Shown here: positions 157 through 10,676 of the stretch, in pieces
Layout of the letters: every line of letters starts with the position of its first letter
Position numbering within the stretch: the stretch's first letter is position 1
IMG/VR virus record: IMGVR_UViG_3300044729_001153
Coordinates: 1-23,107 of that record
Length of the DNA stretch: 23,107 nt
From: a virus
Direction: 5' to 3' (one strand)
The notes under the pieces: model-generated
What the model was told of the DNA's origin: nothing
Databases searched by the model: none
What the model saw: the letters and a program-made list of their open reading frames with translations, nothing else
Made by a program: the position numbers and the translations under genes

Positions 157-169
157 GTCACATTGTGAC
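157..169. repeat. GTCAC-N3-GTGAC palindrome, copy 1
   Basis: Exact 5-bp inverted arms with centre ATT. It lies 13 bp upstream of the GGAACTA box of the first sigma-E-like promoter, an operator-like position. Confidence 0.85.
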
Positions 170-182
170 ATTTTCCATTCCG

Positions 183-211
183 GGAACTATTCGCCCCATT
201 CAATTGTCCAA
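183..211 (+). promoter_or_regulatory. Sigma-E (ECF)-like promoter 1
   Basis: GGAACTA (183-189), a 16-bp gap, then GTCCAA (206-211). The layout matches the known RpoE-type consensus GGAACTT-N15/16-GTCNNA with one mismatch in the -35 box. The same spacing recurs at 1313, 3248 and 5592. It would drive the gene at 261. This copy is the most diverged: it lacks the TCAGGTT spacer word and has CGGGTGTAG where the others have AAGGGTAGG. Confidence 0.5.
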
Positions 212-260
212 CGGGTGTAGTCGCAGTAATCAACCTTTAACTTTTTAATCGGAGAATCAA

Positions 261-848
261 ATGTCTACTATCCAGACTCTTAATGAAAAACTCGTTGTGT
301 TCGGTGCAATGATTGATGAGGCCCTCAACGTTGAGGCGGAGGCCAAGGCCGCAGTTAAGGCCCGCTGGAAGGAAACCGCTCAAGGTGCAATCGATACCTT
401 TGGCGACGACTGGATCCATTTCGCTATGCTCAGCAAGCGGGACCCGGCAATCGCCGCGACTGCCAAGCGACATGTTGACTCTATCAAGAGTTCACACGCT
501 GAGAATGCGAAGACTTTCCGGGAATACGCCTCGGGTATCAAGGCCACGGTAAAAGATAAGGTCGAGGCCCGGGCTGATGATAAGGGCAATTACCGGGAAC
601 AATACAGTCGTTTCTTGGCCTATTGTGTGGAATTGTCCGGGCTGTCTAGTCTGTATGTGCCCAAAGATGCTAATGCACCGGGCACGGGTTCAGGAACCAC
701 CTCTTACGATAAGGTCGCTGAGGCCTTGCGTGTCCTGAGGAACCATCTGTCGCAATGCGAACCCCAGGCCGTGGAAAACCTCTTAACCATGTGGCCCGAT
801 ATCGAAGAGGCCGCGATCGACGACGGCCTTTTGAAAGAATCAGTCTAA
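261..848 (+). CDS. Phage protein of unknown function, paralogue A
   Basis: 195 residues, mostly helical and charged, without a motif I recognise. The start is fixed by CGGAGAATCAA just upstream and by alignment with the paralogue at 1411-1989 (EKLVVFGA versus EKLAIFGA). The pair shares DWIH-AMLSKRDP, REQYSRFLAYCVE, SYDKVAEALRVLRNHL and QCEPQAVENLL, and by eye well over half of positions are identical. Codon choice differs strongly (GAGGCC here, GCAGAA in the paralogue), so the duplication is not recent. It is preceded by a sigma-E-like promoter and a palindrome. The position, first gene of the early region behind its own promoter, suggests an abundant early or regulatory protein, but that is inference. 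Confidence 0.85.
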   Translation: MSTIQTLNEKLVVFGAMIDEALNVEAEAKAAVKARWKETAQGAIDTFGDDWIHFAMLSKRDPAIAATAKRHVDSIKSSHAENAKTFREYASGIKATVKDKVEARADDKGNYREQYSRFLAYCVELSGLSSLYVPKDANAPGTGSGTTSYDKVAEALRVLRNHLSQCEPQAVENLLTMWPDIEEAAIDDGLLKESV

Positions 849-862
849 CCCTGACCTAACCC

Positions 863-882
863 GGCCCCCCGCAAGGGGGGCC
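863..882 (+). other. GC-only hairpin with GCAA tetraloop
   Basis: GGCCCCCC-GCAA-GGGGGGCC, a perfect 8-bp stem closed by a stable GNRA tetraloop between the genes at 261 and 902. No T-run follows, so it is not a standard terminator. It could be an mRNA 3'-end stabiliser, a processing site or a weak attenuator separating expression of the two genes. Confidence 0.55.
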
Positions 883-901
883 ATAACCCGGAGAAAAAAC
901 C

Positions 902-1123
902 ATGATTAACCTCTTAACAGTAACCCCCGCTTATGGTCGCGATTACAAGAGTGCAAAAGACGCACGAGCCGACTGGGATTCGGGCAAAGATTTTTTTGCT
1001 CAGGGTCTAACCTTCCAGGGATACCTCAGCTCCCGTGATTCTGAGGCCCTCAAAAAAGACGGGTATACCGGGATAATGATTCGATACGGTAACCTCAGGA
1101 AGGGAACCCTCTTCGATCTGTAA
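902..1123 (+). CDS. Small conserved phage protein (LLTVTPAYGRDYKS)
   Basis: 73 residues beginning MINLLTVTPAYGRDYKS, followed by ADWDSGKDF and a C-terminal GYTGIMIRYGNLRKGTLF segment. I recall short proteins with this TPAYGRDYKS opening in phages and proteobacteria, but no function is known to me. The Shine-Dalgarno is GGAG at 890-893. It is co-transcribed with the gene at 261, separated by the hairpin at 863-882, and followed directly by a strong terminator, so the two genes form one short operon. Confidence 0.75.
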   Translation: MINLLTVTPAYGRDYKSAKDARADWDSGKDFFAQGLTFQGYLSSRDSEALKKDGYTGIMIRYGNLRKGTLFDL

Positions 1124-1144
1124 CCCTAACTTCTCAGTACATAA

Positions 1145-1168
1145 CCCGGCTTAGGCCGGGTTTTTTTT
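1145..1168 (+). terminator. Intrinsic terminator of the first operon
   Basis: CCCGGC-TTAG-GCCGGG stem-loop followed by eight T. It ends the transcription unit that begins at the 183-211 promoter. Confidence 0.85.
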
Positions 1169-1191
1169 CGCCCAAAAAATCTCACGCCCCC

Positions 1192-1204
1192 GTCACATTG
1201 TGAC
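1192..1204. repeat. GTCAC-N3-GTGAC palindrome, copy 2
   Basis: Exact arms, centre ATT, 24 bp past the terminator T-run. It starts the duplicated non-coding block whose second copy begins at 2042. Confidence 0.85.
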
Positions 1205-1229
1205 GCCCGCCACCCGCCACCGGGTTCTC

Positions 1230-1262
1230 GCAGGGGTCACTGGTATCGTGCGAATTCTCGCC
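1230..1262. repeat. 33-bp direct repeat, copy 1
   Basis: Thirty of 33 bases match 2095-2127 (core CAGGGGTCACTGGT, then CGTGCG and CTCGCC). Each copy lies between two palindromes about 110 bp apart and follows the terminator of a paralogous gene block, so it belongs to the same duplication. A 10-base piece, GGTCACTGGT, also occurs inverted at 10389-10398. Confidence 0.75.
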
Positions 1263-1299
1263 ATCAACCCAGGAATGTCTCGCCATCATCGCCTGAGAT

Positions 1300-1312
1300 G
1301 TCACAGTGTGAC
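1300..1312. repeat. GTCAC-N3-GTGAC palindrome, copy 3
   Basis: Exact arms, centre AGT. It abuts the GGAACTT box of promoter 2 with no gap, so a protein bound here would overlap or touch sigma region 4 contacts. Confidence 0.85.
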
Positions 1313-1341
1313 GGAACTTTTCCTCAGGTTTCATTGTCTTA
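1313..1341 (+). promoter_or_regulatory. Sigma-E (ECF)-like promoter 2
   Basis: GGAACTT (1313-1319), 16 bp, GTCTTA (1336-1341). The spacer contains TCAGGTT, and AAGGGTAGG (1343-1351) follows; both words are shared with promoters 3 and 4. It is bracketed by palindromes at 1300 and 1379 and drives the paralogue at 1411. Confidence 0.6.
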
Positions 1342-1378
1342 TAAGGGTAGGACGCAGTAATGATGTTAAACAAACCCC

Positions 1379-1391
1379 GTCACATTGTGAC
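1379..1391. repeat. GTCAC-N3-GTGAC palindrome, copy 4
   Basis: Exact arms, centre ATT, 19 bp before the ATG at 1411 and about 38 bp past the promoter -10. This is a typical place for repression by roadblock or for mRNA-leader control. Confidence 0.85.
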
Positions 1392-1410
1392 ACTTACCTG
1401 GAGAATCAAA

Positions 1411-1989
1411 ATGCAAGTACAAACCACAGCAGAAAAACTGGCTATCTTTGGCGCGGCAGTAGACACTGTCCTGAACACTGAGGCAGAAGTGCAGGGATTG
1501 ATCAAAGCCCAGTGGCGTGCCACAGCAGGCAAAGCCCTGGAGTTGTTTGGGTGTGATTGGATTCACTACGCCATGTTATCCAAGCGTGACCCCGGCGTGG
1601 TGAAAGTGGCGAAAGCCTATGTTGAGACCATCAAAGGCGAGAACTCCGAGTACGCCAAGACCACGAAAGAATACGCGTCAAGTATTAAGCAGTCAGTGGT
1701 TGAGCGCGTAAAAGCCCGGTCAGACGCGGGCGGCAATCCGCGTGAGCAGTACAGTCGTTTCCTAGCTTATTGCGTGGAGATCGCGGGACTGTCAGAATAC
1801 GCGCCCAGGGAGAAAGCCCCAGGCACAGGCGGCGGCACAACATCCTATGACAAGGTAGCAGAAGCCCTGCGCGTGCTACGCAACCATCTGCCGCAATGCG
1901 AACCCCAGGCAGTTGAGAATCTGCTGGCTTTGTGGGTAGACATCGAGCAGGCAGCCCTGGAAGATGGCGTCATCAAAGAACAAGTTTAG
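1411..1989 (+). CDS. Phage protein of unknown function, paralogue B
   Basis: 192 residues, clear paralogue of the protein at 261-848, with the same block order (EKLAIFGA, DWIHYAMLSKRDP, REQYSRFLAYCVE, VLRNHLPQCEPQAVENLL). An in-frame ATG exists at 1360, but the ATG at 1411 is chosen because TGGAGAATCAAA precedes it exactly as before the paralogue and the aligned N-termini agree. The upstream extension would translate the palindrome as RHIVT. It has its own sigma-E-like promoter and terminator. The function is unknown; keeping two diverged copies suggests different timing or partners. Confidence 0.85.
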   Translation: MQVQTTAEKLAIFGAAVDTVLNTEAEVQGLIKAQWRATAGKALELFGCDWIHYAMLSKRDPGVVKVAKAYVETIKGENSEYAKTTKEYASSIKQSVVERVKARSDAGGNPREQYSRFLAYCVEIAGLSEYAPREKAPGTGGGTTSYDKVAEALRVLRNHLPQCEPQAVENLLALWVDIEQAALEDGVIKEQV

Positions 1990-2009
1990 GCAACCCTCAA
2001 CCCTTAACA

Positions 2010-2035
2010 CCCCAGCCATCGGCTGGGGTTTTTTT
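2010..2035 (+). terminator. Intrinsic terminator after paralogue B
   Basis: CCCCAGCC-ATC-GGCTGGGG stem-loop followed by seven T. Confidence 0.85.
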
Positions 2036-2041
2036 GTGCCT

Positions 2042-2054
2042 GTCACATTGTGAC
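2042..2054. repeat. GTCAC-N3-GTGAC palindrome, copy 5
   Basis: Exact arms, centre ATT, seven bases past a terminator T-run, the same relation as copy 2 has to its terminator. Confidence 0.85.
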
Positions 2055-2094
2055 GCATCCCTGAAGAAATTCCCGCAGGGTTCCATGCCCTTAG

Positions 2095-2127
2095 GCAGGG
2101 GTCACTGGTCTCGTGCGCATACTCGCC
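2095..2127. repeat. 33-bp direct repeat, copy 2
   Basis: Matches 1230-1262 at 30 of 33 positions. It lies between palindromes 5 and 6, paralleling palindromes 2 and 3 around copy 1. Confidence 0.75.
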
Positions 2128-2153
2128 AGCACATCGCAAAAAGCCCCAAAATC

Positions 2154-2166
2154 GTCACTTTGTGAC
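2154..2166. repeat. GTCAC-N3-GTGAC palindrome, copy 6
   Basis: Exact arms, centre TTT. Last palindrome before the AT-rich region, and 13 bp upstream of a possible housekeeping-type promoter. Confidence 0.85.
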
Positions 2167-2179
2167 GTTCCCCTGGAAA

Positions 2180-2209
2180 TTGGCACAGGCGTTGCTTTGA
2201 CCATATTAT
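2180..2209 (+). promoter_or_regulatory. Possible sigma-70-type promoter
   Basis: TTGGCA (2180-2185), 18-bp spacer, TATTAT (2204-2209). It stands 13 bp after palindrome 6 and reads toward the HNH-like gene at 2544. In such A/T-rich DNA chance matches are common, so support is weak. Confidence 0.3.
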
Positions 2210-2317
2210 ATTACATTAATTTACTTATATATTACTATACTATACTACATTATTATTATTATATTACTTTTTTTCTTTTTTTCCAGGAAATTATGAGGCG
2301 CGCGCATTCAAATCGAT

Positions 2318-2336
2318 GGTTTACTCACTGTAAACC
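2318..2336. repeat. Inverted repeat GGTTTAC-N5-GTAAACC, site 1
   Basis: Perfect 7-bp arms around TCACT. A near copy is at 2492-2509. It may be a binding site for an initiator or repressor of the gene at 2544. Confidence 0.55.
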
Positions 2337-2491
2337 CTAAAATTGACCTTTTTTGGCTCGGCGCATGATTTTTTCGGAAAAAAAGGAAAAAAAGAACTTT
2401 ATAGGCCCCATCTCAAGCAAAAAAGTAATATAATAGGAAAATTATGGAAATATATTTGGCTTTTTTACAACACTTTCCCCTCATCTCGTAG

Positions 2492-2509
2492 GGTTACAAT
2501 CTGTAAACC
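2492..2509. repeat. Inverted repeat GGTTAC-N5-GTAAACC, site 2
   Basis: Second, slightly imperfect copy of the 2318-2336 element (one T missing in the left arm). It lies 34 bp before the ATG at 2544, where a repressor could control that gene. Confidence 0.5.
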
Positions 2510-2543
2510 ACGCTGTCTAACCCTCTTTTAGGAGACTCAAACC

Positions 2544-3176
2544 ATGCGATTCGTCCCACTCACCACACCCCATCCAACTTTCCGCGATGCAGCAAATAAT
2601 CCCCTACAATCTACTCAACCATTATCAGACCCCCAAAAACGCGAATTCCTGGCCTGGGTCGCAGAGAACTGTCACGATGTGACGGGGACAAACCTCGATG
2701 AACAAAAAAACAACTGCTGGAACTGGAAGGGTGCAACCGACAAAAACCAAGGCGCCGCCAGGTACATGAATTACCCCGCGCACTCTTACATCTTCAAGCG
2801 TCTGAGCAACACCCTGCACCTTGACCCCGCCACGCTCGGTCGCATCACCCGCACCTGTGGGAACCCCCTATGCGTTAACCCCAACCACTGCCGCATCTCC
2901 GAAGGCCCCCGCACCAAACACAACCGCAAAGTGCAGGATCAGGTAGCTCACCCAAAAGCCGAGATGTCCACAAACGAGTTAATAGAAGAGATCACCGAAG
3001 TGGTCACCAACAACGTGCTGAAAACCCTAACTGCATCCTTAACCCACGACTTAACCAAAACCTTGACGCAAACCCTAACCTCCCAACTGCCAAACCTAAC
3101 CGCTGATGCGGTTGTTGCTGAACTTCTCCGGGTGCGGTTCGATGAGATAGTGGCCCGGGCTGTGAAGGGGAAGTGA
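2544..3176 (+). CDS. HNH-like zinc-fold protein lacking catalytic residues
   Basis: 210 residues. CWNWKGA (about 57-63), then AHSYIFKRL, then RTCGNPLCVNPNHCRI (about 109-124) follow the layout of phage and homing-type HNH proteins (CW-W-GA, AHR..., HLC-N--CVNP-HL). The conserved D-H or H before the first Cys of the last block is T-R here, so the usual general base is absent, while the metal-type Cys, Cys, Asn-Pro and His are kept. This points to DNA binding without cleavage, or a pseudo-enzyme. The C-terminal third is a low-complexity amphipathic stretch rich in TLT repeats, perhaps for oligomerisation. The start has GGAGACTCAAACC upstream. A palindrome inside the gene encodes CHDVT. Confidence 0.7.
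   Translation: MRFVPLTTPHPTFRDAANNPLQSTQPLSDPQKREFLAWVAENCHDVTGTNLDEQKNNCWNWKGATDKNQGAARYMNYPAHSYIFKRLSNTLHLDPATLGRITRTCGNPLCVNPNHCRISEGPRTKHNRKVQDQVAHPKAEMSTNELIEEITEVVTNNVLKTLTASLTHDLTKTLTQTLTSQLPNLTADAVVAELLRVRFDEIVARAVKGK
2671..2683. repeat. GTCAC-N3-GTGAC palindrome, copy 7 (in CDS)
   Basis: Exact arms, centre GAT, inside the HNH-like gene and read as C-H-D-V-T. Confidence 0.85.
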
Positions 3177-3182
3177 GGGAGT

Positions 3183-3231
3183 AAGTGGTTGATTTATGGG
3201 TGGTGTTGTTAAGCGGTTGATTTATGGGTGG
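3183..3231. repeat. Tandem 21-bp direct repeat
   Basis: AAGTGGTTGATTTATGGG with TGG following (3183-3203) recurs at 3211-3231 with one change (T to C), period 28 bp. It lies 16 bp upstream of the GGAACTT box at 3248, where an activator pair could bind. A shorter relative, GAAGTGGTTG, is at 5697-5706 upstream of the AAA+ gene. Confidence 0.7.
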
Positions 3232-3247
3232 ATTTTTTCAGGGTGAG

Positions 3248-3276
3248 GGAACTTAACATCAGGTTTCGTTGTCCAA
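3248..3276 (+). promoter_or_regulatory. Sigma-E (ECF)-like promoter 3
   Basis: GGAACTT (3248-3254), 16 bp, GTCCAA (3271-3276), with the TCAGGTT spacer word and the downstream AAGGGTAGG (3278-3286). It reads into the small-gene run starting at 3364. Confidence 0.6.
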
Positions 3277-3327
3277 TAAGGGTAGGGATAAGTTTTATTT
3301 GTTGTTTTTTGTTTAACCCCCGGGGTC

Positions 3328-3340
3328 GTCACATTGTGAC
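3328..3340. repeat. GTCAC-N3-GTGAC palindrome, copy 8
   Basis: Exact arms, centre ATT, between promoter 3 and the ATG at 3364; same position relative to the gene as copy 4. Confidence 0.85.
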
Positions 3341-3363
3341 ACCCCATAACCCTGGAGAACGAA

Positions 3364-3570
3364 ATGAGTGCAATGTATCTAAAACCAACGGAACTGCGGT
3401 TGGTCAGGCATGAGACCAACAGCCAGACCTTCTACACCTTCCACAAAATCTGGGCCAACGCTGCCGTTGGCCTCCCCCACTACAAATTCATGACCGTCCG
3501 CGATGCCATTAACTGGGCAGACCGGGAGTATCCGGGCGTGGGAGTGGCGATGGGGGGCAATAAAAAATGA
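3364..3570 (+). CDS. Small phage protein of unknown function
   Basis: 68 residues with TGGAGAACGAA as ribosome binding site. It contains aromatic-rich TFYTFHKIW and a C-terminal RDAINWADREYPG segment. Not recognised. It is the first gene after promoter 3 and palindrome 8 and overlaps the next gene by ATGA, so the two are translationally coupled. The N-terminal word MSAMYLKPTELRL offers no clear domain. Confidence 0.75.
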   Translation: MSAMYLKPTELRLVRHETNSQTFYTFHKIWANAAVGLPHYKFMTVRDAINWADREYPGVGVAMGGNKK

Positions 3571-3824
3571 ACGCAACACAAACAACCCTTAACAACTTAA
3601 CAGAACCACGGGATCTCAACGACCCCCAGTGCCGCATGTGCGGCGAGTACCTGGCATTCGCCCGATGGGAGATCGGCAAGCGAACATGTCTGGAGTGTGG
3701 TGAAGAGCAGGCTCGGCAAGAGCGAGCCTACTGGTGCGTGGCTGGCATTAACAAGTCTAACCCCATGCTGGTGACAGACATAGAGACCCTAAAGCAGTTA
3801 AACCCCAAGCGCGTCACAGTGTGA
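3567..3824 (+). CDS. Small zinc-ribbon phage protein
   Basis: 85 residues. CRMC (22-25) and CLEC (41-44) form a two-knuckle C-x2-C...C-x2-C zinc ribbon in the middle of the protein, so nucleic-acid or protein binding is likely. The start overlaps the upstream stop (ATGA). The 3' end runs into palindrome 9, whose TGA is the stop codon. Specific function unknown. Confidence 0.75.
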   Translation: MNATQTTLNNLTEPRDLNDPQCRMCGEYLAFARWEIGKRTCLECGEEQARQERAYWCVAGINKSNPMLVTDIETLKQLNPKRVTV

Positions 3825-3825
3825 C
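3813..3825. repeat. GTCAC-N3-GTGAC palindrome, copy 9 (spans stop codon)
   Basis: Exact arms, centre AGT. The GTC ACA GTG TGA frame ends the zinc-ribbon gene, and the next ATG is 16 bp downstream. Confidence 0.85.
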
Positions 3826-3841
3826 GCAAGGAGAGAGTGAG

Positions 3842-4021
3842 ATGAAAGAGGCAATCACAAGAAAACAAATGTACGCCTACGCACTAGGCTATTACTACGG
3901 ACGTGCAGAAGGTAAAGATCCAGACCTGTATGTGGGCGAGGACGACTGCCGACATTACTACGTAGAAGGTTATGGCGCTGGCGTTACTGACTACTGCGCC
4001 GAGGATGAGGAGGAGAAATGA
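3842..4021 (+). CDS. Small acidic phage protein
   Basis: 59 residues, MKEAITRKQMYAYALGYYYG, then many acidic and aromatic residues and an EDEEEK tail. The ATG at 3842 is preferred over an in-frame GTG at 3821 because AAGGAGAG lies 7-14 bases before it, whereas the GTG sits within the palindrome and has no Shine-Dalgarno. Short proteins with a YxxGYYYGR pattern are frequent in phages; no function is known. Overlaps the next ATG. Confidence 0.7.
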   Translation: MKEAITRKQMYAYALGYYYGRAEGKDPDLYVGEDDCRHYYVEGYGAGVTDYCAEDEEEK

Positions 4022-4200
4022 TGGGTAACTACAACGGGTATGAGACATGGGGCCAGATCAGTACGCGGCAAACCGAGCGCCCATATATAGACCCGAAAGA
4101 GATACAGAGGCAAGAGCGCATAGCCGTGGGGCGCATCTGTCGTTGCCGTGATTGCTTCTGTTGTGCCGAGGCTGGACTAACTAAACAAGGAGAGAAGTGA
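4018..4200 (+). CDS. Small Cys-rich phage protein
   Basis: 60 residues. The N-terminal NYNGYETW stretch is a common phage peptide opening, and CRCRDCFCC near residues 41-49 is strikingly Cys-rich and may bind metal. It is translationally coupled at both ends (overlaps with 3842-4021 and 4200-4343), with GAGGAG as the ribosome binding site. A second ATG follows immediately at 4021. Not recognised further. Confidence 0.65.
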   Translation: MMGNYNGYETWGQISTRQTERPYIDPKEIQRQERIAVGRICRCRDCFCCAEAGLTKQGEK

Positions 4201-4343
4201 TGGGACAGTTTGGTAGGCAGGATGAGGAGTTACACCGAGGCATGATCTACGTCATGCGGAAGGTTAACGGTACATGGGTGCCACTGCGGGTTTGGAATCA
4301 GACCCGATACCAAGAGTGGCTTGGATGTTTTAGCGCGATATAG
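4200..4343 (+). CDS. Very small phage ORF (47 aa)
   Basis: Starts MGQFGRQDEELHRGMIYVMRK and ends in WLGCFSAI. Its ATG overlaps the preceding TGA (GTGATG), and AAGGAGAGAAG supplies a good ribosome binding site. The tryptophan- and arginine-rich content and compact packing argue for a real gene, but nothing identifies a function. Confidence 0.55.
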   Translation: MGQFGRQDEELHRGMIYVMRKVNGTWVPLRVWNQTRYQEWLGCFSAI

Positions 4344-4352
4344 GAGCGTGTC

Positions 4353-4433
4353 ATGGGACAGTTGATCTTTATTTTTTATTTTGTGGTGCTGACTTTTTGT
4401 GGCGCATTGATTCTTTTGAACACGGGGGTGTGA
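4353..4433 (+). CDS. Tiny membrane peptide (26 aa)
   Basis: Almost entirely one hydrophobic helix (LIFIFYFVVLTFCGALILL) after MGQ. TAGGAGCG lies just upstream of the ATG and the stop is followed one base later by the ATG at 4435, so it fits the operon. It is likely a single-pass inner-membrane peptide; role unknown. Confidence 0.5.
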   Translation: MGQLIFIFYFVVLTFCGALILLNTGV

Positions 4434-4434
4434 G

Positions 4435-4683
4435 ATGAAACAAAAAAGCGTATGGCGCGCACGCGGCACCTTGATTAATTACGAAGGTGAAAACGAAGTC
4501 ATTTTTGAAGCCTACTTCACCGACAGGGACACGGCACATGCCGTGTATCACAAGGGAGAGCGTGAGTATGGACTAGCCGCTGGATACACGAGAATGCGTT
4601 GGGAGTTGGAAGGGTTCTACCTTGACGATGATCCACACATTGATCAGATGTTTAACGATGTACGCGAAGCAATGGAGGAATGA
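4435..4683 (+). CDS. Small phage protein of unknown function
   Basis: 82 residues with alternating charged and aromatic residues (WRARGTLINYEGENEVIF, EAYFTDRDTAHAVYHKGERE), predicted alpha/beta by eye, with an acidic C-terminus. It starts one base after the stop of the membrane peptide; GGGGGTGTGAG provides a weak Shine-Dalgarno, suggesting coupling. The stop TGA is followed one base later by the NinX start (TGAGATG). Not recognised. Confidence 0.7.
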   Translation: MKQKSVWRARGTLINYEGENEVIFEAYFTDRDTAHAVYHKGEREYGLAAGYTRMRWELEGFYLDDDPHIDQMFNDVREAMEE

Positions 4684-4684
4684 G

Positions 4685-5017
4685 ATGAAAGTGAAAACGA
4701 GTGAACTACAAGACAAGGCCCTTGACTGGGCGGTGATGCAGTGTGAGGAGTTTGTTGAGGATGTGTTTGAGCCGTCCGAGTACTGGGGTGATGGTGGGCC
4801 GATCATTGAGCGGGAGAAGATTACGTTAGAACATCTTCGTGGAGCAGGGGATACAGGTGCAGATGTTTGGGTAGCCACGCTCACATGTGAGGACAAAAAG
4901 TTTGGTGGTGTTGAGTGTTTTGAAGAACAAGGCCCAACACCCCTGATTGCCGCTATGAGATGTTATGTGGCAAGTAAGTTAGGCGATGAGGTAGAGATAC
5001 CGGAGGAGTTGAAATGA
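4685..5017 (+). CDS. ninX: NinX-like protein (DUF2591)
   Basis: 110 residues. MKVKTSELQDKALDWAVMQC at the start, GGPIIEREKI in the middle and TPLIAAMRCYVASKLGDEVE-PEEL at the end are the family signature of NinX/DUF2591, found in lambdoid and many other proteobacterial phages in the nin-type accessory region; its biochemical role is unknown. The ATG at 4685 is chosen because the family begins MKVKTSEL; an in-frame ATG further upstream would read through the previous gene. ATGA overlap with the next gene. Confidence 0.9.
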   Translation: MKVKTSELQDKALDWAVMQCEEFVEDVFEPSEYWGDGGPIIEREKITLEHLRGAGDTGADVWVATLTCEDKKFGGVECFEEQGPTPLIAAMRCYVASKLGDEVEIPEELK

Positions 5018-5157: not shown

Positions 5158-5160
5158 TGC

Positions 5161-5173
5161 GTCACGTTGTGAC
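5161..5173. repeat. GTCAC-N3-GTGAC palindrome, copy 10
   Basis: Exact arms, centre GTT, in the 35-bp gap before the gene at 5193. The word AAGGGTAGG (5176-5184), otherwise seen just after the sigma-E-like -10 boxes, follows it. Confidence 0.85.
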
Positions 5174-5192
5174 AGAAGGGTAGGTTAATGAC

Positions 5193-5591
5193 ATGGGATA
5201 CAGAAGTGAGGTGTTTATGGCTATTGCCGCAGAAGACCCGGAGAAGGGTGAGGAGCAGATGAAAGGCTTCTACGCCCTGTTAGACGCAAGGGGTATAGAC
5301 CTGGATGAGAATTGGTCTCCGAAAGAATACAGCCGTCAAGCCGATCTCTTTGCGTTTCACACCGAAGATGTTAAGTGGTACTCGACCTTCCCAGAGGTGC
5401 AGGACATCGAGTGGATATACCAGATGGCAATGGATCTACACGAGAACGAAGGCCACAGGATATGTGGCAAGTTTGTGCGTATTGGGGAGGAACCCACCGA
5501 CATAGAGGATAAATGTTTTGGCAATGAGTATTTAGAGATGGGTAGCGTGCGTGTGGTGCTGGACTATCCAACTGACTTATTTCAGGGCTAG
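5193..5591 (+). CDS. Conserved phage protein (MGYRSEV family)
   Basis: 132 residues beginning MGYRSEVFMAIAAED; proteins with this opening are widespread in phages and some bacteria, with no function known to me. Aromatic pairs such as VKWYSTFPEVQDIEW and a C-terminal VRVVLDYPTDLF segment suggest a compact alpha/beta fold. The AAGGGTAGG word upstream may act as the Shine-Dalgarno, though spacing is long. It closes the small-gene operon; promoter 4 starts within its stop region. Confidence 0.75.
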   Translation: MGYRSEVFMAIAAEDPEKGEEQMKGFYALLDARGIDLDENWSPKEYSRQADLFAFHTEDVKWYSTFPEVQDIEWIYQMAMDLHENEGHRICGKFVRIGEEPTDIEDKCFGNEYLEMGSVRVVLDYPTDLFQG

Positions 5592-5620
5592 GGAACTTTT
5601 GTTCAGGTTCTATTGTCCAA
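5592..5620 (+). promoter_or_regulatory. Sigma-E (ECF)-like promoter 4
   Basis: GGAACTT (5592-5598), 16 bp, GTCCAA (5615-5620), with TCAGGTT in the spacer and AAGGGTAGG (5622-5630) downstream. It would drive the AAA+/VWA module beginning at 5780. Confidence 0.6.
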
Positions 5621-5632
5621 TAAGGGTAGGTT

Positions 5633-5698
5633 ATGAATTTGTCTATTAATTTGTTGATGTACGGCTGGGCCTGTCACATTGTGACGGGGGTTTTCTGA
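5633..5698 (+). CDS. Possible 21-aa leader peptide
   Basis: ATG at 5633 directly follows AAGGGTAGGTT and opens MNLSINLLMYGWACHIVTG before a TGA at 5696. It reads palindrome 11 in the same frame as the in-gene copies (CHIVT). It could be a leader peptide, but if the sigma-E-like promoter is right, transcription would begin close to this ATG. Weak. Confidence 0.2.
   Translation: MNLSINLLMYGWACHIVTGVF
5673..5685. repeat. GTCAC-N3-GTGAC palindrome, copy 11
   Basis: Exact arms, centre ATT, between promoter 4 and the AAA+ gene. Confidence 0.85.
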
Positions 5699-5706
5699 AG
5701 TGGTTG

Positions 5707-5737
<31 letters not shown>

Positions 5738-5779
5738 GTTGGCTTTTATCTTTCTAACATCTTAAGGAGCATTACTATT

Positions 5780-6850
5780 ATGGCTACAATTTCTTTCGGT
5801 ACATCAGTCAACCACGACGAGGCAGTTAAGTTGGTCGCGGCGCTTGGCACTACTAATACGTTCCTCTTCCGTGGCGAGCCTGGTGTTGGCAAGTCAAGCA
5901 TGCTCAAAGATCTGGCTAAGTTGTTTCCCGAGCATGAGGTGGCGTATATCGATTGCGCGAACCTTGACCTTGGCGACATTGCGATGCCGTTCATTGATCG
6001 TGAGTTGAACTGCACCCGCTACTATCCAAACGCACACTTTAAGTTGCATACAGGCAGGCCCGTGATCATCATGCTTGACGAGATCACCAAGGCATCTCAG
6101 TCGGTGCAGAACATGTTATTGCCTCTCATCCTTGAGGGCAGGCTTGGCGATACGGTGTTACCTGAGGGGTCGATACGGTTTGCTACGGGCAATCTCACAC
6201 AAGACGGCGTGGGCGATCATCTCAAGGCGCATGTGCAGAACCGCATGACTGTCGTGCAATTCCGCAAGCCAACCGCTGAAGAGTGGATCAAGTGGGCGGT
6301 GCGTCACAATGTGACAGAACAAGTTATTGCGTTTGTTGATCAGTACCCCGAGGTCATGGCGTCGTATCTTGACCCGAGCCAGTCTAAGAATTCCTACATT
6401 TTCAACCCCAAAGAAGTACAGAGCGCATTCTGTTCGCCCCGTTCCCTGGAGATGGCCTCTAACATCTTCAAGAAACGCAGCGCTATTGGTGACGAGCCGA
6501 TGCTGGCCTCATTCATGGGCGTGCTGGGCGAGTCTGGTGCTAGGGCGTTGCATTCGTTCATCAACCTGGACGACAAGTTGCCCACCTTCGACTCGATACT
6601 CGCTGACCCGCATGGCATAACCATACCGTCAGATCCCATTGCGAACTGCATTCTTGTCTACAAGGCAGTTATGACAGTTAAACGGGAGAACATTGATCGC
6701 TGGATGATTTACCTTGAGCGGTTGCCCAAAGAGAACCAAGGCGTATTCGCCCGGACATTGCTTGAGTCTGACAATGCCAAGGCGGCTGGGCACCCTGCGT
6801 TTATTGAATGGGCGACCCGCAACAATTACATCTTCGCCAAGGCTAAGTAA
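5780..6850 (+). CDS. MoxR-type AAA+ ATPase
   Basis: 356 residues. Walker A GEPGVGKS (32-39), Walker B VIIMLDE (95-101), sensor-1 region RFATGN (133-138) and a likely arginine finger in QNRM (R155) define an AAA_5/MoxR-like ATPase, as also used by CobS-like phage proteins. ATG 5780 is chosen because AAGGAG (5764-5769) sits before it; the upstream in-frame TTG would add a low-complexity hydrophobic stretch. By family knowledge MoxR ATPases act on VWA-domain partners, and the next gene is such a partner. It probably remodels or activates a complex formed by the downstream products. Palindrome 12 is read as RHNVT (about 175-179). Confidence 0.9.
   Translation: MATISFGTSVNHDEAVKLVAALGTTNTFLFRGEPGVGKSSMLKDLAKLFPEHEVAYIDCANLDLGDIAMPFIDRELNCTRYYPNAHFKLHTGRPVIIMLDEITKASQSVQNMLLPLILEGRLGDTVLPEGSIRFATGNLTQDGVGDHLKAHVQNRMTVVQFRKPTAEEWIKWAVRHNVTEQVIAFVDQYPEVMASYLDPSQSKNSYIFNPKEVQSAFCSPRSLEMASNIFKKRSAIGDEPMLASFMGVLGESGARALHSFINLDDKLPTFDSILADPHGITIPSDPIANCILVYKAVMTVKRENIDRWMIYLERLPKENQGVFARTLLESDNAKAAGHPAFIEWATRNNYIFAKAK
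6303..6315. repeat. GTCAC-N3-GTGAC palindrome, copy 12 (in CDS)
   Basis: Exact arms, centre AAT, in the AAA+ gene, read R-H-N-V-T. Confidence 0.85.
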
Positions 6851-6877
6851 TTAACAGAAAAGGAAAAGGAGCAACGC

Positions 6878-8065
6878 ATGGATCTTTCCAAACTAACAGC
6901 CGAACAGCGTCTGCACAGGGCGCATGTGACGCTCATGGCGCATAAGAAGTTTATCTTGATGTCGGGCATTCTTGTTTCCGGCAAGACCGAAGTTGTCGAC
7001 AACGACAAGCTAACTGCACGCACCGATGGCCTGAATACTCAGTACGGGCGTCACTTTGTGACAGGTCTGACCGACAAACAGTTGAACTTCTTGGTGCTAC
7101 ACGAGAATTGGCACAAGGCATACAAACATATGCTCGTGTGGCGCAGTCTCTACAAGCAGAACCCCAGAATCGCCAACATGGCATGCGACCACGTGATCAA
7201 TCTACAGATCATCAAGTACGACCCACACGGTACGGTAACTGAAATGCCACCTGGTGGTTGCCACGATGAGCGGTTTGAGGGTATGGATGCCCGACAAGTC
7301 TTTGACATCTTAATGAAAGAGCAAGAAGACGACGAGGGTCAAGGTAACGGTAACGGAGAGGGATTCGATGAACACGATTGGGAGAATGCAGAGTCTTGGG
7401 ACGATGCGCAGCGCAAAGAAGTTGAGCGCAAGATTGATCAGGCGATCAGGCAAGGCGAGATCTTACTTAAGAAGAAGGGAGAGGCTGGCTCGGGAGGAGA
7501 ACGAGACTTCGCTGACCTGCTAGAACCAAAGATAGACCCGTATGAACTTCTTAGAGAGTACATGGTCTCAACATGCACAGAGCGCAGCGACTCTTCATGG
7601 CGGCGTCCGAGTAGAAGGTTTCTGTCGCAAGAGATCTATATGCCGACGACCATCTCTGAATCTATGGACTCTGCGGTGCTGGGCATCGACATGTCTGGGT
7701 CTATCGGTCATGACGAGGTGTTGGAGTTTATCTCTGAGACGGTGAACATCTGTAAAACAGTTAGGCCACAGAAGATCCACATCATCTATTGGGACACAGC
7801 AGTCTGTAAGCACGAGGTCTATGAGCAGCATCAGATCGACGACATCCAGACTCTGACCAAGCCCACGGGTGGTGGAGGTACGAACGTTCAATGTCTGAGG
7901 GAGTACATGCTCCGTCACAATGTGACAAGTCAGGTTTTGCTTGTCCTTACTGATGGAGAGTTGGGGGCAGTAAAGGACTGGGGCGGCATGCCTCCCACAG
8001 TCTGGGTAATTAGTAGTAGAGGCAGGGCTGGGAATTTCCCCGGCAAGATCATCAAACTTAAATAA
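6878..8065 (+). CDS. DUF2201-like protein: HExxH metallopeptidase-like plus VWA domain
   Basis: 395 residues. The N-terminal half has HENWH (75-79), an HExxH zinc-peptidase motif, as in the putative metallopeptidase part of DUF2201 proteins. An acidic, Gly/Asn-rich linker follows (about 148-178). The C-terminal VWA-like domain has an intact MIDAS: D271-M-S273-G-S275, T335 in GGGGTNV, and D359 in LTDGE. The neighbouring MoxR ATPase is the usual partner of such VWA proteins. AAAAGGAGCAACGC precedes the ATG. Two palindromes lie in the gene (RHFVT at 7050, RHNVT at 7914). Whether it cleaves protein or is a chaperone adaptor cannot be told from sequence. Confidence 0.88.
   Translation: MDLSKLTAEQRLHRAHVTLMAHKKFILMSGILVSGKTEVVDNDKLTARTDGLNTQYGRHFVTGLTDKQLNFLVLHENWHKAYKHMLVWRSLYKQNPRIANMACDHVINLQIIKYDPHGTVTEMPPGGCHDERFEGMDARQVFDILMKEQEDDEGQGNGNGEGFDEHDWENAESWDDAQRKEVERKIDQAIRQGEILLKKKGEAGSGGERDFADLLEPKIDPYELLREYMVSTCTERSDSSWRRPSRRFLSQEIYMPTTISESMDSAVLGIDMSGSIGHDEVLEFISETVNICKTVRPQKIHIIYWDTAVCKHEVYEQHQIDDIQTLTKPTGGGGTNVQCLREYMLRHNVTSQVLLVLTDGELGAVKDWGGMPPTVWVISSRGRAGNFPGKIIKLK
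7050..7062. repeat. GTCAC-N3-GTGAC palindrome, copy 13 (in CDS)
   Basis: Exact arms, centre TTT, read R-H-F-V-T just before the HExxH segment. Confidence 0.85.
7914..7926. repeat. GTCAC-N3-GTGAC palindrome, copy 14 (in CDS)
   Basis: Exact arms, centre AAT, read R-H-N-V-T inside the VWA domain. Confidence 0.85.
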
Positions 8066-8076
8066 AGGAAAACATC

Positions 8077-8949
8077 ATGCAAACTCAAGCTAACCACAGC
8101 AACATCAATTCACGCGCCATGCTGGTCGAACTCAACATCGGCTTCTGGCAGGGGCGCAAGACTGACCGCGCAGTATCTGAAGAAGTGGCAGTGAGCAAAA
8201 ACGCTAAGAGTCGTGCTGGCAATTACAGCAAGAACTTGTTACCAGGCGTTAAGGAGCATGACGATCTCAAGAAGGCGGTGGGTGCATTCCGTAATTGGCA
8301 CTACTCACAGACCATTCCTTGGCTTGACTCTGGCGTGCGTCTGCTCACGATGAAGAACTATATTAATTACACCACGATAGCAAACGACAAGTTGTCTGAG
8401 CTACACGAACTGAAGCGTCACTTTGTGACAGCTTACCCGACGTTAAAGTCTGCGGTGGCCTTTGAGTTGGGCGACTTGTTCAATGCCGACGAGTACCCCA
8501 CACAGGCAGAAGTTGACCGCAAGTTTTACTTCAACGTGAATTATTACCCATTGCAATCGGCTGGTGACTTCCGCGTGGATGTGGGCAATGAGATGCACCA
8601 GGAGTTGGTGGCTCAGTATGAGGAGCATTTCAAGAACAAGTTACAGGATGCGATGAAGGACGTATGGGACAGGCTGCACACCACACTCAAGCACCTTGCC
8701 GAGCGTCTAGCAGTTGAGGACGGTGGCGAGAAGAAAGTATTCCGCGACTCACTTGTTACCAATACACGTGAGATGTGTGAGTTGCTGTCATCCCTTAACA
8801 TCACAGACGATCCTCGGCTAGAGCAAGCACGCAAGGAGTTAGAACAAGCCATGCTGGGCATCACTGCCCAAGACCTACGCGACTCGGTGCTAGTACGTAA
8901 CGATGTGCATGCCCGCGTCACCGACATCATCAACAAGTTTTCTTTCTAA
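8077..8949 (+). CDS. DUF3150-like phage protein
   Basis: 290 residues, mainly helical. The N-terminal part (MLVELNIGFWQGRKTDRAVS, then KNAKSRAGNYSKNLLP) and the position behind a MoxR ATPase and a VWA/DUF2201 protein fit the DUF3150 family, which I recall in this phage gene context. The family assignment is from memory of pattern, not a search. The second half is rich in long charged helices (about residues 170-290) suited to protein-protein contact. AAAGGAAAACATC precedes the ATG. It is likely a third component of the ATPase module. Palindrome 15 gives RHFVT. Confidence 0.7.
   Translation: MQTQANHSNINSRAMLVELNIGFWQGRKTDRAVSEEVAVSKNAKSRAGNYSKNLLPGVKEHDDLKKAVGAFRNWHYSQTIPWLDSGVRLLTMKNYINYTTIANDKLSELHELKRHFVTAYPTLKSAVAFELGDLFNADEYPTQAEVDRKFYFNVNYYPLQSAGDFRVDVGNEMHQELVAQYEEHFKNKLQDAMKDVWDRLHTTLKHLAERLAVEDGGEKKVFRDSLVTNTREMCELLSSLNITDDPRLEQARKELEQAMLGITAQDLRDSVLVRNDVHARVTDIINKFSF
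8417..8429. repeat. GTCAC-N3-GTGAC palindrome, copy 15 (in CDS)
   Basis: Exact arms, centre TTT, read R-H-F-V-T. Confidence 0.85.
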
Positions 8950-8954
8950 GGAGC

Positions 8955-8967
8955 GTCACAATGCGAC
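8955..8967. repeat. Degenerate palindrome over a start codon
   Basis: GTCACAATGCGAC differs from the exact site by one base, and its centre is the ATG of the gene at 8961. The spacing to its neighbours fits the array, suggesting a decayed or start-codon-constrained copy. Confidence 0.5.
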
Positions 8968-9944
8968 AGTCAGCCGAGAATACTCTCATTGGCCCCATCA
9001 ACATTGGGTTTATCAGCAGCGTGTTTAGTAACAAGTTACGCATCGACGACAGCCCGGAGAACAAGTTGTTCAAGATGGGCCTAGAAGCCCTGCTCTCCCA
9101 CAAAGATCGGGATAACATGTTTCTGAAGGTTGAGTTAAGAGACGTTGCCATGCGGATCGATAGGGTCGATGTCTACAGCGAGTTTGAGAGTGTGTCTACC
9201 ATGTCGATACACCACCCAGACGGTAACGAGCGGAACAGCCCGCAGTTGCAGATCAAGTTTAGTTACGATGTGCAACAGCGTAGTCCGCGCAACGTCAAGC
9301 GTAGTCTGAACCCCAAGGCCATTGCCGAGTTGGTGAGCAAGATTAAACCCATGCCAGAAATTGAACTAACTGCCCATTGCTTGGGTCAAGTAGATGAGTT
9401 TGCCACGATAAGCGTTAAAGCCTCAGGTACAGGCACGGATTCAGTTAACAGCTTATTGCGTGAACTCTACTACCGGAGGTCGGAGGATCAGGTGCAGATC
9501 ATGGAGAGTTTACTGAGCGGCGGTGATGGCATGCTGCCCACAAGGGAGACAGCGGCAAAAGGAAGCACCGGTATAAGTTTCCGTCAGGCTTTCAACGATG
9601 CTTTTGTTGCGCGTCGGGAGTCTGAGGCTCGGTACAAGGAACTTGTTAGGGATTGCTACATGATTGTCGAGTCGCCGGGCGAGAAGTTTACGGCAGTGCG
9701 TCACACTGTGACAGACGGCAACAGAGATTGCATTGTCACTAAGTACGTTGGCAAAGACACTCTGCCCCCGCATGTCATTGGTGGTATGGCGGTTCTTGAT
9801 ATCATCAGTGAGTATGACGACAGGTCTAACAACTTCAAGACAGTGCCTGGTGTTGCTACGCAGTGTGGTCGCATGCAGAATGTTTTTGTAATCTTCGGGA
9901 GCAGCAGTGACACCGGAAGCCAAGGTCAAGGCCCGAGTAATTAA
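8961..9944 (+). CDS. Unknown 327-aa protein of the AAA+/VWA module
   Basis: Not recognised. It is mixed alpha/beta, with a beta-rich N-terminal half (VELRDVAMRIDRVDVYSEF, LQIKFSYDVQQR) and a Ser/Gly-rich, probably disordered end (SSDTGSQGQGPSN). TAAGGAGCGTCACA precedes the ATG, overlapping a degenerate palindrome. It follows the DUF3150-like gene by 11 bp and its 3' end overlaps the VRR-NUC gene by 38 bp, so it is part of the same operon and probably of the same complex. Palindrome 16 is read as RHTVT near residue 247. The function is open. Confidence 0.75.
   Translation: MRQSAENTLIGPINIGFISSVFSNKLRIDDSPENKLFKMGLEALLSHKDRDNMFLKVELRDVAMRIDRVDVYSEFESVSTMSIHHPDGNERNSPQLQIKFSYDVQQRSPRNVKRSLNPKAIAELVSKIKPMPEIELTAHCLGQVDEFATISVKASGTGTDSVNSLLRELYYRRSEDQVQIMESLLSGGDGMLPTRETAAKGSTGISFRQAFNDAFVARRESEARYKELVRDCYMIVESPGEKFTAVRHTVTDGNRDCIVTKYVGKDTLPPHVIGGMAVLDIISEYDDRSNNFKTVPGVATQCGRMQNVFVIFGSSSDTGSQGQGPSN
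9700..9712. repeat. GTCAC-N3-GTGAC palindrome, copy 16 (in CDS)
   Basis: Exact arms, centre ACT, read R-H-T-V-T. Confidence 0.85.
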
Positions 9945-10212
9945 ACTTCTCAAGGAGAGGGGCGCCTACTACGCCATGCCGGTTGCTGGTGGGTTTGGCA
10001 ATGCGGGCGTCCCCGATATCCTGGTTTGTTATAGGGGTAAGTTTATTGGTATTGAATGCAAGGCCGGGCGCGGGCAGACTACCGCGTTACAGGATAAACA
10101 TTTAGAAGACATAAAGAGGGCGGGGGGCATTTCATTGGTTGTTAGAGAAGATGTAGCTGAGTTGGTGGGAGTGTTGTGTCTGCTTGAACGTCCAGCGGGC
10201 GGTGACGAATAA
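9907..10212 (+). CDS. VRR-NUC domain nuclease
   Basis: 101 residues, GTG start with CGGGAG upstream. G-GNAGVPDILV (D37) followed by IGIECKAG (E50, K52) and a Q in TTALQDKH is the PD-(D/E)xK arrangement of VRR-NUC proteins, small phage stand-alone nucleases related to the nuclease domain of FAN1 and often encoded near replication genes. It probably acts on branched or Holliday-type DNA; the exact substrate cannot be told. The overlap of 38 bp with the upstream gene implies coupling. A shorter start is possible but would lose the conserved N-terminal helix. Confidence 0.9.
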   Translation: MTPEAKVKARVIKLLKERGAYYAMPVAGGFGNAGVPDILVCYRGKFIGIECKAGRGQTTALQDKHLEDIKRAGGISLVVREDVAELVGVLCLLERPAGGDE

Positions 10213-10296
10213 CACCCGCAGTGGGGGGCCTCTTACAGCTTTGTCATTTTGGCTTTCCGGGGGGCTGACCCCACACCTCCACTAATTCACCCTTTC

Positions 10297-10309
10297 GTCA
10301 CAATGTGAC
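10297..10309. repeat. GTCAC-N3-GTGAC palindrome, copy 17
   Basis: Exact arms, centre AAT, in the gap after the VRR-NUC gene. It abuts GGAACTTTT with no gap, as copy 3 does. Confidence 0.85.
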
Positions 10310-10337
10310 GGAACTTTTTTAGAAACGCCCAGTCCCA
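10310..10337 (+). promoter_or_regulatory. Possible fifth, degenerate sigma-E-like promoter
   Basis: GGAACTT (10310-10316), 15 bp, GTCCCA (10332-10337). It lacks TCAGGTT and AAGGGTAGG, and its -10 lies inside the terminator hairpin. It may be a relic, or an attenuated promoter. Confidence 0.25.
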
Positions 10338-10358
10338 GCTATACGCTGGGATTTTTTT
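10333..10358 (+). terminator. Intrinsic terminator after the AAA+/VWA/VRR-NUC operon
   Basis: TCCCAGC-TATAC-GCTGGGA stem-loop followed by seven T. It closes the transcription unit started at promoter 4. Confidence 0.85.
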
Positions 10359-10412
10359 GCGCGTAAATTTTGTGATGAACCCCTGAAACCAGTGACCTGA
10401 GAGGACACAGCC

Positions 10413-10676
10413 ATGAACAAAGACAGCCGTTACGAAATCATTATTGAGGCACTCTGCCAGTACGCGGAAGGTCTGGAGCAGAAGTTGATAGAGCAGAACG
10501 CAAAACAACCTACAAAATGGTTGCCCGTAGCGATAGATGAAGCACCACCTGGACTTGCACAAGCAATAAAACAACAGTTAAAACGTCACAATGTGACGCC
10601 CCCCAAGCGTAGCCCCGGCAGGCCGCGCAAGCACCCGGTGAAACCCGTCGTTAAAACCTCGACCCCTACAGTATGA
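10413..10676 (+). CDS. Small AT-hook phage protein
   Basis: 87 residues. A helical N-terminal half (YEIIIEALCQYAEGLEQKLIEQN) is followed by a basic, Pro-rich tail with SPGRPRKHP (about 67-75), whose GRP core flanked by basic residues is an AT-hook, binding the minor groove of A/T-rich DNA. Palindrome 18 is read as RHNVT just before it. GAGAGG (10399-10404) is the ribosome binding site. It stands alone after a terminator. It may be a DNA-organising or regulatory protein; the N-terminal helix could dimerise. Function inferred from the motif only. Confidence 0.7.
   Translation: MNKDSRYEIIIEALCQYAEGLEQKLIEQNAKQPTKWLPVAIDEAPPGLAQAIKQQLKRHNVTPPKRSPGRPRKHPVKPVVKTSTPTV
10585..10597. repeat. GTCAC-N3-GTGAC palindrome, copy 18 (in CDS, last copy)
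   Basis: Exact arms, centre AAT, read R-H-N-V-T. I find no further exact copy in the remaining 12.5 kb. Confidence 0.85.

What the first reader, a model, noticed from the sequence alone, without database searches (positions are those of the whole stretch)
157..10597. Eighteen exact copies of a 13-bp palindrome, GTCAC-N3-GTGAC, spread over 10.4 kb
The arms are invariant and the centre varies (ATT, AAT, TTT, AGT, GTT, GAT, ACT). Ten copies are intergenic and eight are within or at the end of genes; a ninth genic site (8955) has one mismatch. With ten fixed bases the chance expectation in 23 kb is about 0.02, so this is strongly selected. Dispersed sites inside and between genes resemble the stoperators of mycobacteriophage L5 or a multi-site centromere. 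The binding protein is not identified. The site also contains CACNNNGTG, so a modification or restriction role is possible.
Basis: partly seen in the sequence, partly recalled or inferred. Interest (0 to 1): 0.9.

Follow-up and report, generated by a model that had tools for sequence, protein, structure and literature searches.

The report
Dispersed repressor sites in phage genomes
A phage's early-gene region carries about 18 evenly scattered copies of a short mirror-image DNA site, apparently docking points for a tiny phage-encoded switch protein that stalls RNA polymerase just after it starts; the same layout, with changed letters, recurs in dozens of related uncultivated phages that look strictly lytic.

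Summary
In detail: 18 exact GTCAC-N3-GTGAC copies at 157-10597, about 0.02 expected, plus one degenerate copy (8955). It is not a host word. In 87 kb of the closest relative, 20 of 21 copies lie in the same early block. In more distant relatives the letters change but the array stays: CTAAC-N3/4-GTTAG, ATAAC, GTAAC, GTAAA. By one criterion 67 of 80 relatives carry one. The site is a symmetric ~15-17-bp double-stranded operator: outer bases vary independently on the two arms, which argues against hairpins. Best candidate binder: a 76-aa Cro/CI-type HTH protein (21391-21621) found in 35 of 49 relatives searched. Its recognition-helix residues 45, 47 and 51 change with the site sequence, though phylogeny confounds this. 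Sites avoid promoters. In relatives they lie about +30 to +50 downstream of sigma70 promoters; in the window, at +31, +45 and +46 of ECF-type promoters. They also occur inside genes and are spaced more evenly than chance. Most likely this is stoperator-like early shut-off: the HTH dimer blocks elongating polymerase. No integrase, ParA or ParB was found, so probably lytic. It resembles L5, R4 and phiC31 systems but is no member. Binding and blocking are inferred.

The parts
157..169 (+). site 1 GTCACATTGTGAC, intergenic, 13 bp upstream of an ECF-type -35
1192..1204 (+). site 2 GTCACATTGTGAC, intergenic after a terminator
1300..1312 (+). site 3 GTCACAGTGTGAC, abuts the -35 of the promoter at 1313
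1379..1391 (+). site 4 GTCACATTGTGAC, about +31 of the promoter at 1313, just upstream of SD and ATG 1411
2042..2054 (+). site 5 GTCACATTGTGAC, intergenic
2154..2166 (+). site 6 GTCACTTTGTGAC, intergenic
2671..2683 (+). site 7 GTCACGATGTGAC, inside the HNH-like gene 2544-3176
3328..3340 (+). site 8 GTCACATTGTGAC, about +45 of the promoter at 3248, upstream of SD and ATG 3364
3813..3825 (+). site 9 GTCACAGTGTGAC, at a gene end
5161..5173 (+). site 10 GTCACGTTGTGAC, leader of gene 5193-5591
5673..5685 (+). site 11 GTCACATTGTGAC, about +46 of the promoter at 5592, upstream of the ATPase gene
6303..6315 (+). site 12 GTCACAATGTGAC, inside the MoxR-like ATPase gene
7050..7062 (+). site 13 GTCACTTTGTGAC, inside the gene 6878-8065
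7914..7926 (+). site 14 GTCACAATGTGAC, inside the gene 6878-8065
8417..8429 (+). site 15 GTCACTTTGTGAC, inside gene 8077-8949
8955..8967 (+). degenerate site GTCACAATGCGAC over the start codon at 8961
   Evidence: one mismatch
9700..9712 (+). site 16 GTCACACTGTGAC, inside gene 8961-9944
10297..10309 (+). site 17 GTCACAATGTGAC, after the VRR-NUC-like gene, before a terminator
10585..10597 (+). site 18 GTCACAATGTGAC, last site, inside the small ORF 10413-10676
21391..21621 (+). candidate binding protein: 76-aa Cro/CI-type HTH
   Evidence: family in 35 of 49 relatives; recognition helix 46-53; P47, A51 and S45 change with the site; AlphaFold pLDDT 91.8; XRE-like folds
183..211 (+). ECF/sigmaE-like promoter GGAACTA-N16-GTCCAA
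1313..1341 (+). ECF/sigmaE-like promoter GGAACTT-N16-GTCTTA
3248..3276 (+). ECF/sigmaE-like promoter GGAACTT-N16-GTCCAA
5592..5620 (+). ECF/sigmaE-like promoter GGAACTT-N16-GTCCAA
10331..10353 (+). intrinsic terminator near the end of the array

Best explanation
The palindromes are operators for a dimer of a small phage-encoded Cro/CI-type HTH protein (window 21391-21621). Its gene lies in the replication block, downstream of the array. When that protein accumulates it occupies some 18 sites spread over the ~10-kb early block. Many sites lie just beyond the footprint of an initiating polymerase (about +30 to +46), others just upstream of genes, and others inside long genes. A bound dimer therefore blocks elongating host RNA polymerase rather than promoter binding, and redundancy shuts the whole early block off while the middle block escapes. 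SHOWN by sequence: the array, its restriction to the early block, symmetry without arm-to-arm coupling, placement relative to promoters, even spacing, and recurrence with changed letters. INFERRED: that this HTH is the binder, that it dimerises, that it blocks elongation, and that the purpose is early shut-off in a lytic cycle.
For: Array recurs with altered arms in 67 of 80 relatives and is confined to the early block of long or complete genomes. The symmetric information spans 17 bp (ACCTAAC-ANT-GTTAGGT), falls off outside it, and shows no promoter element at fixed distance. Outer bases are independent on the two arms (z -0.19, 820 sites), as for a dimer on dsDNA. HTH family found in 35 of 49 relatives searched. 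Within the HTH, columns 47 and 51 rank first and second for association with the arm; on a tree, S45 co-changes with the arm at 4 of its 5 changes and P47 at 4 of 10. Fold is XRE-like. Strict sigma70 promoters of relatives: 37 have a site at +20 to +59 and none overlaps from -40 to +19; the opposite-strand control has none at +20 to +59. The window's own ECF-type promoters have sites at +31, +45 and +46, repeated in L001. Spacing is more even than random (P 0.0002-0.04). In-gene ATPase sites are kept within clades and relocated between them. Precedent: C.Kpn2I, a small controller protein of the same fold class, blocks elongating polymerase from a site in its own transcribed gene (PMC6237814; C.Kpn2I appears among the fold matches).
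Against: No binding, footprint or transcript data. The site-HTH association is confounded by phylogeny: many ATPase columns, which are not expected to contact the sites, associate just as strongly, so only the ranking inside the HTH is informative. 14 of 49 contigs gave no HTH match, many of them fragments. Some genomes mix 3- and 4-nt spacers, unusual for one dimer. Some sites abut a -35-like element from upstream (1300, 10297), a position from which an HTH protein could activate instead. A site in the leader just before the SD could also act on RNA.
Confidence: 0.55

Rival explanations
1. The HTH protein is an immunity repressor of a temperate phage that persists without a recognisable integrase (plasmid-like prophage), the array being a stoperator system for lysogeny as in L5 or phiC31.
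For: Dispersed repressor sites are known from temperate phages.
Against: No tyrosine or serine integrase in 23 contigs, including two with circular-type ends (G004, G007), while both controls rang. No ParA or ParB. Only one conserved HTH of this kind was found.
Confidence: 0.15
2. The array is an architectural or silencing element: the HTH bridges evenly spaced sites to fold or condense the early block, repressing it as a nucleoprotein rather than by single roadblocks.
For: Spacing more even than chance with gaps never above about 1.4 kb, many in-gene sites, pairs bracketing promoters about 110-120 bp apart (19 bracketed against 1.7 expected).
Against: Strong preference for +30 to +50 of promoters and for positions just upstream of SD sequences is better explained by transcription control.
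Confidence: 0.12
3. The sites are dispersed activator or antitermination sites: the HTH, bound upstream of or near promoters, promotes transcription or modifies polymerase.
For: Sites 1300 and 10297 abut a GGAACTT -35, an activator-like position; many sites lie in leaders.
Against: Most sites have no promoter at fixed distance; in-gene sites are unexplained.
Confidence: 0.08
4. The palindromes work as hairpins: N4-type single-stranded promoter hairpins for a phage RNA polymerase, or RNA stem-loops in leaders.
For: 5-bp stem and 3-nt loop, all in the gene direction in the window; frequent position just upstream of SD.
Against: Outer pair shows no coupling between arms. Loop asymmetry occurs in both orientations in L001. 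The 2155-aa virion protein gave no RNA-polymerase Pfam domain; its phrog_2206 match covers a segment that by my recollection lies after the N4 catalytic core. No PF00940 match, but that control rang nowhere. In-gene sites are unexplained.
Confidence: 0.07
5. Multi-site centromere or restriction/modification recognition sites.
For: Dispersed palindromes; GTCACNNNGTGAC contains CACNNNGTG.
Against: No ParA or ParB; CACNNNGTG not kept in relatives; sites co-locate with promoters and leaders.
Confidence: 0.03

Closest known systems
L5-type (cluster A mycobacteriophage) repressor/stoperators; also Streptomyces phage R4
   Same: Twenty or more repressor sites dispersed between genes; proposed to stop transcription elongation.
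   Different: L5 sites are asymmetric 13-mers oriented with transcription, bound by a 183-residue monomer with two DNA-binding domains in temperate phages. Here sites are symmetric, the candidate is a 76-aa single-HTH protein, sites also lie inside genes, and no integrase was found.
phiC31 repressor system
   Same: 18-30 dispersed repressor sites in the L5 and phiC31 systems; from my own knowledge the phiC31 sites are conserved inverted repeats of similar length.
   Different: Temperate phage with a larger repressor made as three isoforms; no homology was tested or seen.
C.Kpn2I controller protein
   Same: Small XRE-fold protein acting as an elongation roadblock from a site about 20 bp downstream of the start point, inside the transcribed region; structural match.
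   Different: One site regulating its own gene in a restriction-modification system, not a genome-wide array.
Lambda Cro/CI and 434 repressor operators
   Same: Five-helix HTH fold; palindromic operator with the axis on a central base (17 bp for lambda, own knowledge).
   Different: Lambda operators overlap promoters; here sites avoid them and are dispersed over 10 kb.
N4 virion RNA polymerase hairpin promoters
   Same: 5-bp stem, 3-nt loop (own knowledge); both phage groups carry MoxR-like ATPase and phrog_1314 neighbour genes.
   Different: No arm coupling, no directionality in L001, no polymerase domain found.

Membership tests
L5-type stoperator system | many repressor sites dispersed in intergenic and early regions | tested here: met
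L5-type stoperator system | asymmetric site oriented with transcription | tested here: not met
   symmetric palindrome; loop asymmetry in both orientations in L001
L5-type stoperator system | about 183-aa monomeric repressor with HTH plus Stoperator domain | tested here: not met
   the candidate is 76 aa with a single HTH domain
L5-type stoperator system | temperate phage with integrase | tested here: not met
   no PF00589 or PF00239 in 23 contigs, controls positive; the window itself is a fragment
L5-type stoperator system | bound repressor stops elongation | not testable with these tools
   geometry only
phiC31 dispersed-repeat repressor system | dispersed inverted-repeat repressor sites | tested here: met
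   the comparison with phiC31 repeats is from own knowledge
phiC31 dispersed-repeat repressor system | homologous repressor with isoforms | not tested
   no phiC31 repressor was compared
Cro/CI (XRE) family regulator | helical HTH fold of the XRE type | tested here: met
   best matches are XRE proteins, probabilities about 0.9-1.0, but E-values above 0.1 because the protein is short; Pfam HTH_3 only below cut-off
Cro/CI (XRE) family regulator | binds the palindrome as a dimer | not testable with these tools
   indirect: arm independence, recognition-helix covariation
N4-type hairpin promoters | stem pairs maintained by compensatory change within genomes | tested here: not met
   z -0.19 at the outer pair
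N4-type hairpin promoters | phage-encoded single-subunit RNA polymerase | tested here: inconclusive
   (the PF00940 control rang nowhere)
multi-site centromere (parS-like) | ParA/ParB partition proteins | tested here: not met
   controls positive
modification/restriction site | fixed recognition word kept in relatives | tested here: not met
   CACNNNGTG replaced by TAAC-type arms in relatives

The most novel reading that the evidence does not exclude
A widespread group of lytic aquatic phages controls its early genes with a 76-aa Cro-like protein acting on ~10-25 evenly spaced operators inside and between genes. It silences a whole 10-kb block by roadblocking or DNA bridging, with protein and operator letters co-diverging between lineages to make mutually insulated specificities.
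Probability: 0.4. Interest if true: 0.75.

Novelty: new variant of a known kind. Interest (0 to 1): 0.62.

Why it matters
Dispersed repressor sites that stop elongation are known from a few temperate actinobacterial phages. Finding the same logic with a minimal single-domain protein in many apparently lytic phages would separate the mechanism from lysogeny, and would offer a natural series of protein-operator specificity pairs. The +30 to +46 placement makes the roadblock model directly testable in a simple reporter. No paper describing such arrays in these phages turned up in the searches made; those searches cover only an open-access library.

Tried and rejected
The N4-type hairpin promoter was my first idea (MoxR plus phrog_1314 genes, 5-3-5 hairpin, all in gene direction); dropped after the coupling test, the two-way loops in L001 and the absence of a polymerase domain. 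Centromere. Integrase. Rfam search of the window: nothing. Nearest named phages: megablast no match, HTH tblastn no match in the phage collection. KPP25, Rollin, pelagiphages HTVC023P/HTVC027P, CRP-902 and DSL-LC04 showed no array of this kind, and Caulobacter phage RW only 5 weak copies, in the stretches read. Covariation by mutual information alone was judged insufficient after the ATPase control. Two Pag-Yong1 genes annotated as DNA-binding or AlpA-like were read without identifying a binder for its array.
Full report
OBSERVATION. One search confirms 18 exact GTCAC-N3-GTGAC copies from 157 to 10597, one copy with a mismatch at 8955, and none in the remaining 12.5 kb. The ten fixed bases make 0.02 copies expected.

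NOT A HOST WORD. Megablast finds no near phage record. Relatives were fetched through the MoxR-like ATPase at 5780-6850. The nearest (L001, 86% ATPase identity, an 87-kb contig) has 21 copies, 20 of them in the same 11-kb early block. The 46%-identical relatives L005 and L006 have no GTCAC copy but 16 and 15 copies of CTAAC-N3-GTTAG in the same block. Across 80 loci, 67 carry at least four copies of one 5-bp-arm palindrome at a probability far below chance. The arms seen include CTAAC-3, CTAAC-4, ATAAC-3, GTAAC-3, GTAAC-4, TTAAC-4 and GTAAA-3. Looser arms recover arrays in several of the rest. In long or circular genomes the sites are confined to the early block and absent or sparse elsewhere.

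WHAT KIND OF SITE. The CTAAC sites have a symmetric 17-bp information profile, ACCTAAC-ANT-GTTAGGT, with nothing conserved outside. In 820 sites the outermost base of one arm is independent of that of the other arm within a genome, as expected for a protein dimer reading two half-sites and not for a base-paired hairpin. The inner arm bases are invariant and cannot be tested. In L001 the asymmetric loop base occurs in both orientations.

CANDIDATE BINDER. A 76-aa HTH protein (window 21391-21621) is conserved; in G004 its gene lies between the homologue of window gene 20402-21283 and a primase/helicase-like gene. An HMM finds it in 35 of 49 contigs. It is predicted as a five-helix domain with recognition helix 46-53 (pLDDT 91.8), and its best structural matches are XRE-type regulators, including a lambda repressor fragment and C.Kpn2I (E-values are weak because the protein is short). 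Site classes match recognition-helix residues: TAAC arms go with Asn (or Ser) at 51, TCAC arms with Ala or Tyr; CTAAC with Gln, Met or Ala at 47, G-TAAC with Thr, GTCAC with Pro; two ATAAC genomes have Lys for Arg at 46. Columns 47 and 51 rank first and second within the HTH. By my recollection of 434 repressor they align with its base-contacting Gln29 and Gln33. CONTROL: many ATPase columns associate equally strongly because of shared descent. On a tree with 7 site changes, S45 co-changes at 4 of 5 and P47 at 4 of 10 of its changes, about one expected for P47. This is moderate, not decisive, evidence.

PLACEMENT. Strict sigma70-type promoters near arrays have a site starting +20 to +59 from the predicted start in 37 cases, none between -40 and +19, and none at +20 to +59 on the opposite-strand control. 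A looser set gives 58 of 199 promoters with a site 40-59 bp after the -10, and 19 bracketed by two sites against 1.7 expected. The window itself lacks such sigma70 promoters but has a repeated element resembling ECF/sigmaE promoters (consensus from own knowledge), GGAACTT-N16-GTCCAA, at 183, 1313, 3248 and 5592. Six pattern matches were found where 0.3 are expected (two of these are probably a terminator stem and a coding match). Sites follow at +31, +45 and +46, and L001 repeats this with +31, +32, +45 and +46. Sites are spaced more evenly than random in seven genomes (P 0.0002-0.04). In-gene sites are real: in the ATPase gene they sit at residue 229 in 42 loci and residue 98 in 34, but at residue 177 in the window and L001 and at 155, 158 and 327 in others.

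MECHANISM. A site at +31 to +46 lies just beyond an initiating polymerase, so a bound dimer would not prevent initiation but would meet the elongating enzyme. Sites before genes and inside long genes add further blocks. The HTH gene lies downstream of the array in the replication block, so its product could close the early block while the middle block continues. A small protein of the same fold class, C.Kpn2I, is shown to act as an elongation roadblock from a site about 20 bp downstream of a start point (PMC6237814). Everything from binding onward is inference here.

LIFESTYLE. No tyrosine or serine integrase and no ParA or ParB in 23 contigs, with positive controls; two contigs (G004, G007) have circular-type ends. 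A lytic lifestyle is likely but not proven.

KNOWN SYSTEMS. L5 and R4 stoperators and the phiC31 repeats are the closest in logic (PMC9283540, PMC4557955, PMC10276819). L5 membership fails on site symmetry, protein architecture and integrase. Isolated, more distant phages carry analogous arrays with other letters and spacers: Planktothrix phage Pag-Yong1 has 22 GTTCA-N3-TGAAC sites, many just upstream of gene starts; Alcaligenes phage QDWS535 has 11 CCTAA-N2-TTAGG; Rhizobium phage RHph_TM3_14A has 20 TTACC-N6-GGTAA. They lack a recognisable copy of this HTH, so shared mechanism there is only a guess.

VERDICT. A real, conserved, phage-specific array; best read as dispersed operators for a tiny Cro-like protein with stoperator-like action, a new variant of a known kind.

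Noticed in passing
window 183, 1313, 3248, 5592; L001 4114, 5449, 7859, 9801: Repeated promoter-like element GGAACTT-N16-GTCCAA(TAAGGGTAGG), resembling ECF/sigmaE promoters, in the early block; relatives with CTAAC arms have sigma70-type TATAAT promoters instead. A phage using an envelope-stress-type sigma for early genes would be unusual.
   Followed up: partly
window 1230-1266 and 2095-2131: A 37-nt element GCAGGGGTCACTGGTMTCGTGCGNATWCTCGCCA, 89% identical in two copies, each between a pair of palindromes about 110 bp apart.
   Followed up: no
window 2180-2530: AT-rich low-complexity noncoding stretch with inverted repeats in the middle of the early block; possible origin or promoter region.
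   Followed up: no
window 261-848 and 1411-1989: Two paralogous early genes (about 195 aa) with no Pfam or PHROG match.
   Followed up: no
G001 (87-kb contig), 16302-16526 and 82732-82953: Two different HTH paralogues (GVSRPTVYAWF and GVSRVSIYTWF) on one contig; either a second regulator or a chimeric or larger genome.
   Followed up: no
window 13677-14413: Four copies of GAAGCCAAACTAAAGGAGAAGAA(C/T)ACATGA at ends of consecutive small genes (C-terminal EAKLKEKNT plus the next start codon), suggesting repeated cassette-like small genes.
   Followed up: no
L152 (Planktothrix phage Pag-Yong1) 8816-47583: 22 copies of GTTCA-N3-TGAAC in an isolated, annotated phage, a dozen or so about 20-30 nt upstream of a gene start; the binder there is unidentified.
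   Followed up: partly
L082 (Rhizobium phage RHph_TM3_14A) 30610-33693: Annotated 'putative integrase' of 1028 aa gives no PF00589 or PF00239 match and sits where relatives have a primase/helicase-like gene; probably misannotated.
   Followed up: partly
G004 32803-35634 and 26077-32544: 943-aa DUF927 primase/helicase-like protein and 2155-aa polyvalent protein (LPD39, DarB-like) at the end of the early and late blocks.
   Followed up: partly
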